From: Diploptera punctata
Lineage: Eukaryota > Arthropoda > Insecta > Blattodea > Blaberidae
Assembly: GCA_030220185.1 (NCBI GenBank)
Contig: JASPKZ010007250.1
Coordinates: forward strand, 2,383,501-2,447,500
Length of the DNA stretch: 64,000 nt
Reading direction: 5' to 3'
Position numbers and translations under genes: made by a program. Below the pieces are notes generated by a model, which worked only from the letters and a program-made list of their open reading frames with translations, was not told where the DNA came from and made no database searches. Every line of letters starts with the position of its first letter. Position 1 is the first letter of the stretch. This document shows, piece by piece, positions 15,571-59,371 of this stretch.

Positions 15571-15869
15571 GATCCCTATTAGGTTCGTCTTCCGGGCATA
15601 TAGGCCGTGGTCCAGTCGTTCTTCTACTCGACGTTTCGTCTACTGCTGCGGTAGACATCTTCAGGAGATACTGCGTGCTCTCTGTGAACTCCTCAACAGT
15701 CGGCTGCAGACTGTTGAGGAGTTCACAGAGAGCACGCAGTATCTCCTGAAGATGTCTACCGCAGCAGTAGACGAAACGTCGAGTAGAAGAACGACTGGAC
15801 CACGGCCTATATGCCCGGAAGACGAACCTAATAGGGATCAAGACGCCGGCCGTGAAAGCCTACAGTTAT
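15571..15869 (+). mobile_element. Foldback insertion with perfect 133-bp palindrome arms
   Basis: Arms 15569-15701 and 15709-15841 are exact reverse complements around the 7-nt centre GGCTGCA. A unique tail (GACGCCGGCCGTGAAAGCC...) follows to 15869. A perfect 14-bp TSD, ACATGATTAATATT, lies at 15557-15570 and 15870-15883. The host RTE-A has a related single site. Each arm holds CTGAAGA-T-GTCTAC-loop-GTAGAC-GAAA-CGTC (plus copy 15746-15780). A Penelope-like origin is possible but not shown. The paired reading frames on the two strands are consequences of the palindrome. Confidence 0.93.
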
Positions 15870-16254
15870 ACATGATTAATATTATTCTCCCTCTTCAGTC
15901 TTGGTCTACCTACTGGACGCTTATCTCCTGGTTTTCCTGCATAGTTTCCATGTCCCTCTTTCATTCCCATTCGTGCTTAATATCCTACCCATGCAGTCTA
16001 CGAGACTTAAATCTTGTTATTATATGTGGTTTCTCATAAAGATCATGTAGCTCAATATTATGCAGTCTTCTCCATTCGCTTGTCTGTTCATGTCTGGTCC
16101 AAAATTTGTCCTAAGAACTTTATTCTCAAATACCGGAACTCGTAACCTTTTCTCCTGCCTTAAAATAAGAGTACATGTTTCGCATCCATATAATATAACT
16201 GCAAAAATATAAGAGTTTTATGTATTTTCATTTTAATGTTTTTATGAGAGATGT

Positions 16255-16484
16255 CAGACCATAAAAGGAATTCTGAGATTCTCAAAGAATTACAAACAGA
16301 ATCAGTCATGGAATATGTACAAAAATACAGACACAACTGGAAATCTCACGTACGAAGAATGAGCAGAACACGAATACCACGTCAGATCTTAAATTACCAG
16401 CCACCAGGCAAGATATCTTTGGGCAGACCCTTCAAACGTTGGATTGAGACCGTAATCATATGAAAGGAAGAAGAAGAAGAAGAA
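16255..16484 (+). pseudogene. LINE-d C-terminal tail, (GAA)n end
   Basis: A 230-bp 5'-truncated copy. One frame carries NSEILKELQTESVMEYVQKY, WKSHVRRM and GRPFKRW, then (GAA)n. TSD GAGAGATGT at 16246-16254 and 16485-16493 (9 bp). It is almost identical to 39745-40026. Confidence 0.92.
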
Positions 16485-16517
16485 GAGAGATGTTGGGATG
16501 CAAGAAACCTGTACCTG

Positions 16518-16583
16518 TTATTGTCATTGTTATTATTATTATTATTATTATTATTATTATTATTATTATTATTATTATTATTA
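16518..16583. repeat. (TTA)n microsatellite
   Basis: About 20 TTA units between the RTE-A remnant and LINE-e. The long poly-Ile frames across it are artefacts. Confidence 0.95.
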
Positions 16584-16586
16584 AAG

Positions 16587-16800
16587 TGGTTAGGACATGT
16601 CTTAAGAATGGAAGATCAGCGATGGCCGAAACAACTATATGAATGGCATCCGAACAGAAAGAAGAAAAGAGGGAGACCAAGGTAAACATGGAAGGAAAAC
16701 ATGAAGACAGTAATGCAAGCTAGAGGGCTAAGCATCGAAGATGCCCAAGACCGTAGGCTTTGGAGGTTTGGCACGGGAAGACGGCAGCAGCTGTAAAAAC
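16587..16800 (+). pseudogene. LINE-e C-terminal fragment
   Basis: The frame runs KVVRTCLKNGR in one phase and WLGHVLRMEDQRWPKQLYEW, KKRGRPR, TWKENMKTVM and QDRRLWRF in another, ending at a stop near 16796. It shows the same WxGHxxRM...GRPR layout as RTE-A but is a different family with only one copy here. Confidence 0.75.
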
Positions 16801-16816
16801 CCGAAGATAGAGAGAT

Positions 16817-17440
16817 TATTATCCTCAAGATTTAATACTAGAAGAACATTTAGGGACAATTAAATACACTGAAGAATGTAAGTATTTGGGAATTAAAATG
16901 ACTAAAGATGGAAAACAAGAAACAGAGATAAGAAACAGGATCAATATAGGAAAGTATGCTATATCTGCCCTAAATGGAATAGTATGGGACAAACATATCT
17001 TCAAAGAAACAAAAAAAACTATTTTTAATACAATAATCAGAAGCATTATTACCTATGGAGCTGATGTGTGGGCTTCAAATGCACAAATGAAAAAAAAAAT
17101 TACTCGCCACTGAAATGGACTACTGGAGACGTGCTGCAAGAATATCCAGGAAGGATAAAATCAGAAATTCATATATAAAAGAAAAAATGCAGGTACAATA
17201 TTCAATATTAGATTTTATAAAGAAGAAACAATTAAATTGGTACGGGCATATTAGAAGGATGGAAGAAGGAAGACTACCTAAGATAATCATGGATTGGGAA
17301 CCACAGGAAGGAAAAAGAAGGGTAGACCAAATATTACGTGGATTCAGGATCAATGAAACTAAGAGGAATGGGATATAGAAAGAAGATATATGGATGAACA
17401 GACAAGAAATGGAAAAATGTGTTGAAACAAATGTGTAGTT
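16817..17440 (+). pseudogene. LINE-f, RT thumb to C-terminus
   Basis: It starts at DLILEEHLG, continues YLGIKMTKDGKQE, IIRSIITYGADVW and, after a frameshift in an A-run near 17090-17100, MDYWRRAARISRKDK and LNWYGHIRRMEEGRLP. A short UTR leads to A-rich sequence and (ATT)n at 17511-17530. It is the longest plus-strand copy of the family in the window. Confidence 0.85.
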
Positions 17441-56680: not shown

Positions 56681-56689
56681 GGAATTTTA

Positions 56690-56872
56690 TATGAATTTTA
56701 TTAGAATTGATTTATTCTCAAATAAATATGAAATTATTGTATTGTCACGGGTCCTCTACAAGTATACAAAGTTTCAAGTCGATCCGATGATTTTAAGTGG
56801 GTGAAAATCGCGTTGAAAGATTCCGTTACATAGATAGATAGATACAGGTCAAGCTAATATAAAGCGTGTAAA
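56690..56872 (-). repeat. Repeat L, minus copy with short (TATC)n
   Basis: Mirrors 36762-37190: GTGGGTGAAAATCGCGTTG, CCGTTACATAGATAGATAGA and GCTAATATAAAGCGTGTAAAA. Only three to four tetranucleotide units. Confidence 0.88.
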
Positions 56873-56888
56873 ATACTCGTAATCTTTT

Positions 56889-57331
56889 CATAAGTAATGC
56901 CACGAGTGATTTCCAAATTATCGATAAATTCACGACTCACGAAGTGAGGAGTGAATTTATCTAGAGAATTTGGAAATCAAGAGTGGCATTTGTTAGGACT
57001 ATTTAACGAATAAAATTAAGCTGTTTACTCACAAATCATTATTTAACTATAGTTATTTTAAATTATTTATATATTTAATGTAAACGGCGATGTTTGAAAA
57101 CAAATGAGAAACGATAGGTACGCTTCTACTGCTTCTTTTGTTTATCACTGCAACCAGATCATACTATTTATTGCCAAAGGAACGCAATATTGTAAGGAGG
57201 AGCTTTCTTTAATATGGTAATTATAACACTGATAAATATTTGGTGAAACACGACTCTGATTGGTTGTAAAACAGAAATCATTGAAACGTGATTGGTCATT
57301 GACTCCCATTTGGGGCATGAGTTAAATAGTC
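56889..57331 (+). mobile_element. Repeat D, internally deleted copy
   Basis: Full hairpin at about 56896-56990, inner ends GGACTATTTAAC and GTTAAATAGTC, and a deletion between GCAATATTGTAAG and GAGGAGCTTTC relative to 22246-22952. The outer side is an RTE-A fragment. Confidence 0.9.
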
Positions 57332-57419
57332 TCTTATACATACACACTCTTAAATTAAAAGACCACATAAGATAGGCCTATTTGGAAGAATCGCAGGTTT
57401 ATGTGCTTATTATAAATTA

Positions 57420-58269
57420 CTAGCGGCGTGCGGTGCTACTCCCAAAATAAATGTTAATGTGTTTTTACCTCCAGCAGTGCGCTGTTACACTTGCCCGGGA
57501 ATCTGCTTATGCCGATCTTCTTGTCATCAATGAAAGACAAAAATGTTTATTGTGAGCTATCCGTAGAAGATAAACATTTGCTGTCGCGGACTTTTTTGTA
57601 CAGTTTTTTTTAAGATGTTCAATTCTGTGTACATTAATTTGGTGTATTTGTTATTTTTTAGGCAGCGTAGGGGCCTAAGCCATTTAAGCATCAAAATAGG
57701 GACTTCATTTCATGTTTTTTCACTACAAAGGGTGATTTTTAGGAATGAATGGGTTGAGTATTACAACTCTCTTATAGCCTATGTTCATCCCCGGAATCTC
57801 CTGAACATTTTTCAAAAAGCCCCATCTCAATCGGATGAACAGTATGGCAGGGTATCTACTAATCCCGATCATCTTGGCATCAATGAAAGACAAACATGGT
57901 TAACGTGAGTTATCCGTAAAAGATGAACATATGCTGTCGCGGACTTTTTTGTAGAGTTTCTTGAGATATTAAATTCTGGGTACATTAATTTGGTGTATTT
58001 GTTAGGGTATAGGCAGCGTAAGCCATTAAACGTCAAAATAGGTATTTTATTCAACTTTTTTACTACAAAGTGTGATTTTTAGGGGTGAAGGGGTTGAATA
58101 TCACAACTTTCTTATAACCTATGTTCATTCTGGGAATCTCTTGAACGTTTTGCAAAAAACCCCATCAAAATCGTTTCAACGGTATGGCCGCGCACAGAAT
58201 ACGACAAACAAACCAACAAACAAACAAACAAACAAACAAACAAACAAACATTGATTTTTATATATTAGA
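57420..58269 (-). mobile_element. Helitron-like element with internal tandem duplication
   Basis: On the minus strand it starts TCTAATATATAAAAATCAATG (58269) and ends GCCGCTAG followed by T (57420-57423). It lacks inverted ends and a target duplication, which fits a Helitron. Two diverged ~350-bp copies of the same segment sit in tandem (about 57505-57860 and 57861-58200). (AAAC)n at 58212-58249. Confidence 0.6.
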
Positions 58270-58810
58270 AGATATAATAGTATCAAGTGAAACGATAAGC
58301 CGACTATATAAGTTATCTTCATTATGCCATTGCTGCAGGAAGACGAAGCATTTCTGCCATGCGATAAGAAGGATGGACAGACAGACGGACATGGTGGCGC
58401 AGCTTTGAGCGACGTAGGTTGGTGAATTCACTGGGGATCCAGATTACGCCCGGGGTTCAACATGCCAACGAGATAAACGAGGACACAGTCCCACGTACCT
58501 ACTGTTCAACATTAGAGCTACATACAGGTCACCAAACATTTGTCGACATTACATTAAATAAATATACATTATATTAATCAATATTTTTACCAAGGAACAT
58601 GACAAAAATGTACAAATACCTCAGGCATACCACAGAAAAAAAAAAAGCTAAACTACGTGATATAGCGGGGAAGTTTAAACCCCAGGGCAACATTAATATT
58701 TTACTGTGTGTCTGCCCAACTTGGCCTAACTTTTAACGTATCTACTAAAGCAGATAGTCTCACTTGCATGCGCAACTGTGAAGAGAGGGAGAAAGAGAGC
58801 CAAAGCAACT
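58270..58810. other. No recognisable feature
   Basis: No coding or repeat match. Confidence 0.5.
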
Positions 58811-59371
58811 AAATTAAAACATAAAATTATGAAAAATTTAACTAAAAGGTCCATCTCCTCAACTTTATTAAGTTATTTATCTGTAGCGCTTTCAAGACTA
58901 GTCCCATCATCAGCAGGATTCAAAACTGGTGTTTCACTGAAGATCTGGTAGAGGGAGTTACACGTACTGGGTGCGTTTTCATTTATCAGATGGCCGTTGT
59001 TGTTAACTGCCTTCAAAATTTCCATCTTCGCTAGATTATTTTCTCTGTGCATTACTGTTAGGGTATTTTCAATGTCAAATTATACGATTTCCTTCATGGC
59101 TAACGTGTTTTGCAAAGCTTGATTTTCCTTCTACTTGAATAAATAATACTCGAGGAATTGCAAATTTTAAACGCGGTTAACAACAATGACCATCTGATAA
59201 ATGAAAACACACCCAGTACGTGTAACCCCCTCTACCAGATCTTAAGAGAAACACCAGTTTTGAATCCCGCTGATGATGGGACTAGTCCCGAAAGCGCAAC
59301 ATATAAATAACTAATAAAGTTGACGAGACGGAACTTTTAGATAAATATTTCATAATTTTATGTTTTAATTT
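58811..59371. mobile_element. Foldback element P with two hammerhead-like motifs
   Basis: Inverted arms 58811-59021 and 59162-59371 (about 210 bp, imperfect) around a 140-bp spacer. Each arm has CTGATGA-T-GGGAC-TA-GTCCC-GAAA-GCGC (plus at 59270-59297; minus at 58886-58913 with GTCTT, which keeps G-U pairing). No reading frame of note. The arrangement recalls Penelope-like elements, whose terminal repeats can be inverted and are known to carry hammerhead motifs, but no GIY-YIG or RT sequence is present. Confidence 0.8.

What the first reader, a model, noticed from the sequence alone, without database searches (positions are those of the whole stretch)
15571..59297. A hammerhead-like stem motif recurs in three foldback families with mostly compensated stems
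Seen: CTGANGA-T-(stem-loop)-GAAA at 15746-15776 (and mirrored), 59270-59293 and mirrored 58886-58913, 56548-56573, 54132-54157; weaker versions with CAGAAGA at 47865-47889 and 30358-30382. Stem pairs are GTCTAC/GTAGAC, GGGAC/GTCCC, GGGAC/GTCTT (wobble), GGAGG/CTTCC, GGAA/TTCC and GGAA/TTCT, so the sequence changes while pairing is kept. At 30358 the stem is weak: CAAA/TTTT has a C-T mismatch at its base. Known: hammerhead ribozymes have CUGANGA-stem II-GAAA, and Penelope-like elements and retrozymes carry them. Unusual: all loci have one extra nucleotide (T) before the stem, and I cannot place stems I and III or the cleavage triplet. It may be a variant ribozyme, a structural RNA, or a conserved coding segment.
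Basis: partly seen in the sequence, partly recalled or inferred. Interest (0 to 1): 0.78.

Follow-up and report, generated by a model that had tools for sequence, protein, structure and literature searches.

The report
Jumping-gene RNAs with paired hammerhead scissors
The odd repeated motif looks like a tiny self-cutting RNA, a hammerhead ribozyme that should work only when two copies pair up, carried by a class of jumping genes called Penelope-like elements that fill this probably insect genome; the type is known, but the numbers and some details here are unusual.

Summary
The motif is real: a scan blind to stems I and III finds 7 copies in the window against 0.35 per shuffle. GAAA is followed at once by a short palindrome, U, a non-G base, then bases pairing with those before CUGA: a minimal type I hammerhead whose stem III forms between two RNAs. 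Across the genome the palindromes differ (GGCC, GCGC, CATG, TCGCGA, CTGCAG, CATATG and others) yet stay self-complementary: 30 of 48 copies against 0.84 in shuffles. Position 17 is never G (0 of 36). The loci look like ends of Penelope-like elements: head-to-head pairs, target duplications, a one-sided tail, and elsewhere the motif at the end of RT/GIY-YIG ORFs. The extra T is one spacer nucleotide, T or A (45,972 matches against at most 395 without it, for stems closed by GG/CC). Rfam detects none of the copies tested. In four families (one by a guessed frame) the predicted cut falls 0-8 nt before the stop codon. Cleavage was not tested; most window copies look decayed. Known kind, unusual abundance.

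The parts
15571..15870 (.). Family A: solo head-to-head inverted pair of Penelope-like terminal repeats with a one-sided tail of about 30 nt on the right
   Evidence: Inverted arms 15569-15704/15706-15841, 99% complementary; flanked by CATGATTAATATT at 15558-15570 and 15871-15883; lies inside a copy of an RTE-type repeat
15743..15783 (+). Family A hammerhead motif: stem I CTC/GAG (15743-15745, 15781-15783), core CTGAAGA, spacer T, stem II GTCTAC/GTAGAC, GAAA, palindrome CG, U16.1 at 15779, C17 at 15780; predicted cut after 15780
   Evidence: the MFE fold of 15735-15786 draws stems I and II, with the spacer U paired to the G of GAAA; not more stable than shuffles (z 0.60)
15627..15667 (-). Mirror copy of the family A motif; predicted cut after 15630 on the minus strand
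30354..30392 (+). Locus F, decayed motif (CAGAAGA, stem II with C-T mismatch, GAAA-GGCC-A instead of U16.1); stem I AATG/CATT kept
30231..30484 (.). Inverted arms around locus F (30231-30303 / 30412-30484, 84%)
47862..47898 (+). Locus E: CAGAAGA-T-GGAACATAATTCT-GAAA-GGCC-U-U|CAT, stem I ATG/CAT
54131..54164 (+). Locus B: stem II GGAAG/TTTCC (one wobble), GAAA-GGCC-U-A| ; stem I one pair only (G/C)
56419..56711 (.). Locus C element: inverted arms with one motif; the left arm ends before the motif
   Evidence: arms 56439-56476/56600-56637 and 56411-56438/56639-56666; flanks TTATTTTCAAATAA 56405-56418 / TTATTCTCAAATAA 56712-56725, 13 of 14
56546..56581 (+). Locus C motif: stem II GGAGGT/ACTTCC (one wobble), GAAA-GGCC-U-C| ; stem I TG/CA
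58813..59416 (.). Family D element: head-to-head inverted Penelope-like ends
   Evidence: arms 58871-59024/59159-59312 (90%) and 58811-58870/59312-59371 (92%); flanks AAAGCAACTAA 58802-58812 / AAGGCAACTAA 59417-59427, 8 nt exact
58881..58916 (-). Family D motif, mirror copy: CTG|CTGATGA-T-GGGACTAGTCTT-GAAA-GCGC-U-A|CAG, predicted cut after 58884 (minus strand)
59269..59300 (+). Family D motif, plus copy; U16.1 changed to A (59298), so probably inactive
59149..59310 (+). Open frame LEELQILNAVNNNDHLINENTPSTCNPLYQILRETPVLNPADDGTSPESATYK* running through the motif; read as the C-terminal end of a Penelope-like ORF
   Evidence: frame read; no Pfam, homologue or usable structure match of its own; identity inferred from the same arrangement in L240/L241 and from recalled resemblance to Penelope C-termini

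Best explanation
Each motif is a copy, often decayed, of a minimal type I hammerhead ribozyme in the terminal repeat (pLTR) of Penelope-like retroelements. It lacks an internal stem III. The sequence after GAAA is a self-complementary A-N(2-8)-U, so two RNA copies supply stem III to each other, as two copies in a tandem transcript or as two transcripts. Each strand is then cut after the non-G base that follows the U. One spacer nucleotide (U or A) lies between A9 and stem II. In the readable elements the motif overlaps the 3' end of the RT/GIY-YIG ORF and the predicted cut falls just before the stop codon. Cutting tandem transcripts would therefore release unit-length RNA and take the stop codon off the coding RNA. 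Foldbacks arise because these elements insert as head-to-head inverted pLTR pairs. Shown here: anatomy, covariation, palindromes, position-17 rule, association with Penelope-like ORFs elsewhere in the genome, target duplications at A and (weaker) C and D. Inferred: dimer formation, cleavage, and what cleavage is for.
For: Window: 7 loci, all with one inserted T; 6 of 7 have palindrome+U+H and at least 1 bp of stem I, against 0.005 per shuffle. Stem III: loci chosen by core, GAAA and stem II have the palindrome at the right offset in 30 of 48, 0-4 at six wrong offsets, 0.84 in shuffled tails. Base 16.1 is U in 36 of 40 (where two palindrome lengths fitted, the one followed by T was taken, so this leans to U); base 17 is A14, C12, U10, G0. 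Stem II: 36 distinct arm pairs chosen without it are 0.89 paired against 0.66 (max 0.74) and have 49 double changes against 13 (max 29) when arms are swapped. Stem I, 38 loci: 2.55 bp against 1.15 (max 1.74) with swapped flanks. Element: RT PF00078 and GIY-YIG PF01541 in L240/L241 with the motif at the ORF end; motif with at most one core change within the first 600 nt on the sense strand in 6 of 20 GIY-YIG loci, each at nt 374-388, 0 of 20 in the same stretch antisense; head-to-head neighbours 14, tail-to-tail 1 among 100 listed places.
Against: No cleavage data. Rfam, hammerhead models included, gives no hammerhead match at E<=10 in the window or 20 other loci. Folded alone, stem II forms at its base in 25 of 37 distinct copies; of five window copies folded, only A folds as drawn, B, C, D- and E prefer other folds, and none is clearly more stable than its shuffles (best z -1.88). 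18 of 48 copies lack a palindrome of 4 nt or more. The number of stem II pair types (19) does not exceed swapped arms (mean 16.3, max 20). Stem I is often a single base pair or none (15 of 38). A spacer next to A9 could hurt catalysis, and in 16 of those 25 folds it pairs with G12. No RT or GIY-YIG domain of such an element was found with the window copies; their element identity rests on structure and on the family pattern elsewhere in the genome. The copies are related by descent, so the shuffle figures are not probabilities.
Confidence: 0.86

Rival explanations
1. The motif is a conserved coding segment (C-terminus of the element's protein) and the stem is incidental.
For: CTGANGAT is read as (A/E)-D-(D/V) in one frame at A, B, D, and in GIY-YIG elements the ORF runs through the motif.
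Against: GAAA lies in all three frames relative to CTGANGAT in different families (stem-loops of 19, 14, 12 nt); palindromes and stem II covary as RNA; base 17 avoids G.
Confidence: 0.04
2. A DNA- or RNA-level palindrome-plus-hairpin signal for integration, self-priming or protein binding, without catalysis; resemblance to a hammerhead is secondary.
For: Penelope elements form palindromes and inverted junctions (PMC3846280, passages); many stem II arms are themselves palindromes such as GGGACTAGTCCC (listing); in the Anolis element hammerhead mutants still insert in vitro (PMC11167929, main text).
Against: The core CUGANGA/GAAA, U at 16.1 and absence of G at 17 (0 of 36) are predicted by a hammerhead and not by a generic palindrome.
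Confidence: 0.08
3. The copies derive from a once active ribozyme but all are now dead; conservation only reflects recent copying of element families.
For: Window copies carry damage: U16.1 to A at 59298, CAGA cores at 47865 and 30358, stem mismatch at 30358. Of 58 distinct copies with stem II, 16 have no palindrome (one search lists 17, of which L203 has an 8-nt one that the script did not look for).
Against: Eleven different palindromes with different stems keep the same rules, which needs selection while the families were spreading.
Confidence: 0.15

Closest known systems
Small dimeric hammerhead variants of Penelope-like retrotransposons (Lunse, Weinberg, Breaker 2017; Cervera and de la Pena 2014; neither paper is held, titles seen in reference lists)
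   Same: Type I topology, little or no stem III, action as dimers, location in Penelope-like elements, as summarised in PMC7761336, PMC6155905 and PMC6466107 (passages read)
   Different: Whether the one-nucleotide spacer, the 4-8 nt palindromes and the overlap with the ORF stop are described there could not be checked; [quoted passage not shown]
Hammerhead of the Anolis Poseidon element PAc (PMC11167929, main text read)
   Same: [quoted passage not shown] cut 26 nt downstream of the ORF start; counted from the A of CTGANGATG the predicted cut is also 26 nt at loci B and C
   Different: In PAc the motif overlaps the ORF start; here the readable ORFs overlap it with their 3' end; PAc RNA cleaved only with protein present
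Newt/axolotl hammerheads (PMC7229834, passages) and Aedes hammerheads with palindromic stem III (PMC3088659, Figure S8 legend)
   Same: Weak stem III closed by a palindrome that can pair in a dimer
   Different: The axolotl ones keep contacts between loops 1 and 2 and lie in tandem retrozyme repeats, not in Penelope pLTRs with a spacer nucleotide

Membership tests
Hammerhead ribozyme, minimal dimer type | Core CUGANGA ... GAAA flanking stem II | tested here: met
   stem II covariation
Hammerhead ribozyme, minimal dimer type | A15.1-U16.1 pair and H (not G) at 17 | tested here: met
   U in 36 of 40, G in 0 of 36; D+ and F have lost U16.1
Hammerhead ribozyme, minimal dimer type | Stem III available between two copies (self-complementary) | tested here: met
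   30 of 48 against 0.84 shuffled; palindrome duplex in 23 of 37 cofold MFEs
Hammerhead ribozyme, minimal dimer type | Stem I next to C3 and the cut | tested here: met
   mean 2.55 bp against 1.15 with swapped flanks, 38 loci; 15 of 38 have one pair or none
Hammerhead ribozyme, minimal dimer type | Stem II directly after A9 | tested here: not met
   One spacer nucleotide, T or A, in nearly all copies; a passage in PMC10085705 implies that one- or two-nucleotide insertions there are known
Hammerhead ribozyme, minimal dimer type | Self-cleavage | not testable with these tools
   needs bench work
Rfam hammerhead families | Score above gathering threshold | tested here: not met
   Searches (window; 20 other loci): no hammerhead match up to E=10
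Penelope-like element | RT plus GIY-YIG ORF | tested here: met
   PF00078 and PF01541 in L240 and L241; not found with the window copies themselves
Penelope-like element | Inverted (head-to-head) pLTR pairs | tested here: met
Penelope-like element | Target duplication and optional one-sided tail of about 30 nt | tested here: met
   A: 13 bp exact plus tail; C 13 of 14; D 8 bp exact; at B and E only one-mismatch candidates of 10 and 12 nt, at F none; no chance level was computed

The most novel reading that the evidence does not exclude
Each Penelope-like family carries its own palindrome as a private dimer code, so that only RNAs of the same family meet and cut each other. Because the cut lies 0-8 nt before the stop codon, cleavage also switches the RNA from message to template: translating ribosomes keep the ribozyme open, and a cleaved RNA can no longer end translation. 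The near-invariant spacer nucleotide would keep the lone copy inactive, for example by pairing with G12, until a partner or the element protein releases it.
Probability: 0.15. Interest if true: 0.72.

Novelty: new member of a known kind. Interest (0 to 1): 0.47.

Why it matters
By extrapolation from one contig, a genome of 3.1 Gb holds some 200,000 copies of a self-cleaving-type RNA motif that Rfam did not report in any stretch tested here. The many families with different palindromes give a natural data set for dimer-dependent ribozymes, and the position of the cut just before the stop codon suggests a testable answer to why Penelope-like elements keep a hammerhead, which a 2020 review calls a mystery (PMC7761336, passages).

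Tried and rejected
Rfam scans: no hammerhead. Pattern scans of viral and prokaryote collections: 0, 17, 0, 24 and 70 loci. Of 112 pooled matches 101 have a stem II of 3 bp or fewer and look like chance; 11 have 4-8 bp, more than I would expect, so a few may be real relatives or host contamination (L020, L040, L089 for example); not followed. Homologue, structure and Pfam searches with the short C-terminal frames of families D and A: nothing usable. First idea that the extra T is forced by an ATG start codon: rejected as the general rule, because 22,698 matches have A there. DNA searches with families A and D and a broken-pair control pattern did not complete, so copy numbers of those families and that control are missing. 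Paper searches on hammerheads with Penelope or retrotransposons: in the passages that I read of ten papers nothing describes this spacer, beyond the PMC10085705 sentence; the two key papers and two others are not held.
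Full report
Observation. A scan that knows nothing of stems I and III (C[AT]GANGA, 0-2 inserted nt, at least 4 bp next to GAAA) finds 7 loci in the window, all 7 with exactly one inserted T; 200 dinucleotide shuffles average 0.35 loci, maximum 2. 30358 is a decayed relative.

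Missing stems found. In 6 of the 7 loci GAAA is followed directly by a palindrome (CG at both family A copies, GGCC at B, C, E, GCGC at D-), then U, then a non-G base, and then bases that pair with those just before CUGA (CTC/GAG, CTG/CAG, ATG/CAT, TG/CA; a single G/C at B). Shuffles give 0.005 such loci. The seventh, 59270, has U16.1 changed to A while its mirror copy keeps it. This is the plan of a type I hammerhead with no stem III of its own, in which two copies lend each other stem III.

Genome test. The window lies in a 3.123 Gb assembly. Of 80 listed matches fetched with flanks (one search places from C1:205453 to C1:990474; the earlier ones lie in the 200 kb, the last rows were left out), 46 have stem II of 4 bp or more. 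If the first megabase of contig C1 is typical this means roughly 200,000 copies. In 200 kb taken without selection (5 kb of it N) 18 of 20 parses have one inserted nucleotide (16 T, 2 A), 1 none and 1 two.

Covariation. Among 48 distinct copies chosen by core, GAAA and a stem II of 5 bp or more, 30 have a palindrome of 4-8 nt plus U and H directly after GAAA; at six wrong offsets 0-4 do; shuffled tails average 0.84, maximum 6. Eleven different palindromes occur. In a second count (58 distinct copies with stem II of 4 bp or more, 40 of them with a palindrome of 4 or 6 nt) the base after the palindrome is U in 36 of 40, taking the length followed by T where two fitted; the next base is A 14, C 12, U 10, G 0, although G makes up 17.7% of the window. 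That absence of G is what a hammerhead demands at position 17. Among 36 distinct arm pairs chosen by core, GAAA and palindrome only, 89% of stem II cells pair against 66% (maximum 74%) with arms swapped between loci, and 49 cells differ on both sides against 13 (maximum 29); the number of pair types, 19, does not stand out (16.3, maximum 20). Stem I averages 2.55 bp in 38 loci against 1.15 (maximum 1.74) with swapped flanks. These copies are related by descent, and the 80 fetched loci were picked by a pattern that already fixed T and GAAA; the palindrome, base 17 and stem I were not in that pattern.

The extra nucleotide. With GG..CC closing stem II, the genome holds 23,274 matches with T as spacer (control 7), 22,698 with A (control 15; nearly all of the listed ones from one family, GGTACAGTGTACC) and 395 without spacer (control 48), some of which carry G as spacer. 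C or G spacers were not counted separately. The length is kept, the identity is not. Monomer folds pair the spacer with G12 in 16 of the 25 copies whose stem II forms at its base, out of 37. Whether this spacer is already described for Penelope hammerheads could not be checked; [quoted passage not shown]

What carries it. Family A is a 300-nt insert in an RTE-type repeat, flanked by a 13-bp target duplication, made of two pLTR-like arms head to head with a one-sided tail of about 30 nt. PMC3846280 (passages) describes these traits for Penelope elements: inverted pLTRs, a 31-bp optional tail on one of them, palindromes at head-to-head junctions. The tail of A ends 119 nt after the ATG inside the motif; in the Anolis element reverse transcription starts 111-118 nt into the ORF (PMC11167929, main text). 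C and D also have inverted arms and weaker duplications. Of the 100 places listed, neighbours within 5 kb are head to head 14 times, tail to tail once, same strand 3 times. PF01541 gives 150 scored matches, all above cut-off, from 45,022 first-look candidates. Of 20 such loci that I picked from the 150 for long open frames, 6 have the motif (at most one core change) within 600 nt on the sense strand, all six at nt 374-388, and none in the same stretch on the antisense; further copies lie later on the sense strand in three loci and elsewhere on the antisense in two. Eleven of the other 14 belong by eye to one subgroup with a different 3' end. Two stretches bounded by opposed motifs hold RT (PF00078) and GIY-YIG domains. 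The RT has 643 homologues at E 0.001 or better, many of the named ones from insects; one is a Diploptera punctata protein, 95% identical over 21% of the query, so the host may be that cockroach (inference).

Position relative to the ORF. In L141, L158, L240 (both ends) and L241 (both ends) the predicted cut lies exactly between the last sense codon and the stop; in L147 and L156 it lies 4 nt before the stop, in both family D copies 8 nt, in family A 3 nt if the frame read there is right; B gives 27 nt. L142, L146 and L157, three of the 11 GIY-YIG ends examined, have shifted or damaged frames and do not show it. Some of these copies carry a core or palindrome change (L141, L156, L158, D+).

Not coding conservation. 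CTGANGAT is read in one frame, but the stem-loop is 19, 14 or 12 nt long in A, B and D, so GAAA falls in all three frames (sequences).

State of the window copies. Folded alone, B, C, D- and E do not fold as drawn, and none of the five copies folded is clearly more stable than its shuffles; D+, E and F carry core or pairing damage; A sits in a near-perfect 136-nt inverted repeat in which sense and antisense motifs would pair with each other. I expect little or no activity from the window's copies themselves.

Noticed in passing
1-1975: Tandem satellite array, 207-bp unit, 9.6 copies, 97% matches.
   Followed up: no
59964-60035: tRNA-like sequence called tRNA-Asp with anticodon ATC by ARAGORN and matching Rfam tRNA, beside simple repeats; may be a tRNA-derived SINE or pseudogene.
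   Followed up: no
23061-24170, 38036-38935, 52942-53403 and others: Many copies of one non-LTR (RTE-type, label recalled) element; elements A and C of the motif sit in copies of this repeat.
   Followed up: partly
G000:C3:2515126-2515350: Four copies of the A-spacer motif on the same strand, start-to-start spacing 100, 50 and 50 nt, a tandem array that could form dimers in cis (listing).
   Followed up: no
L153 (minus strand), about nt 390-430 of the ORF strand; also L143-L145, L148-L151, L154, L155, L159: A Penelope-like subgroup with a different 3' end, TTGAGAATG-TCACA-AAAGA-TGTGA-AGAAACCCAGGGTC in L153, which looks like a further diverged hammerhead with its own stem III (by eye).
   Followed up: no
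   Followed up: partly
L089 3757 and 4534: Two motif-like copies followed by GAAACGCGTA on a 5.3-kb contig filed as a Streptomycetaceae MAG; possibly eukaryote contamination.
   Followed up: no
57497-58188: Direct duplication with a period of about 340 nt, 2 copies, 81% matches.
   Followed up: no
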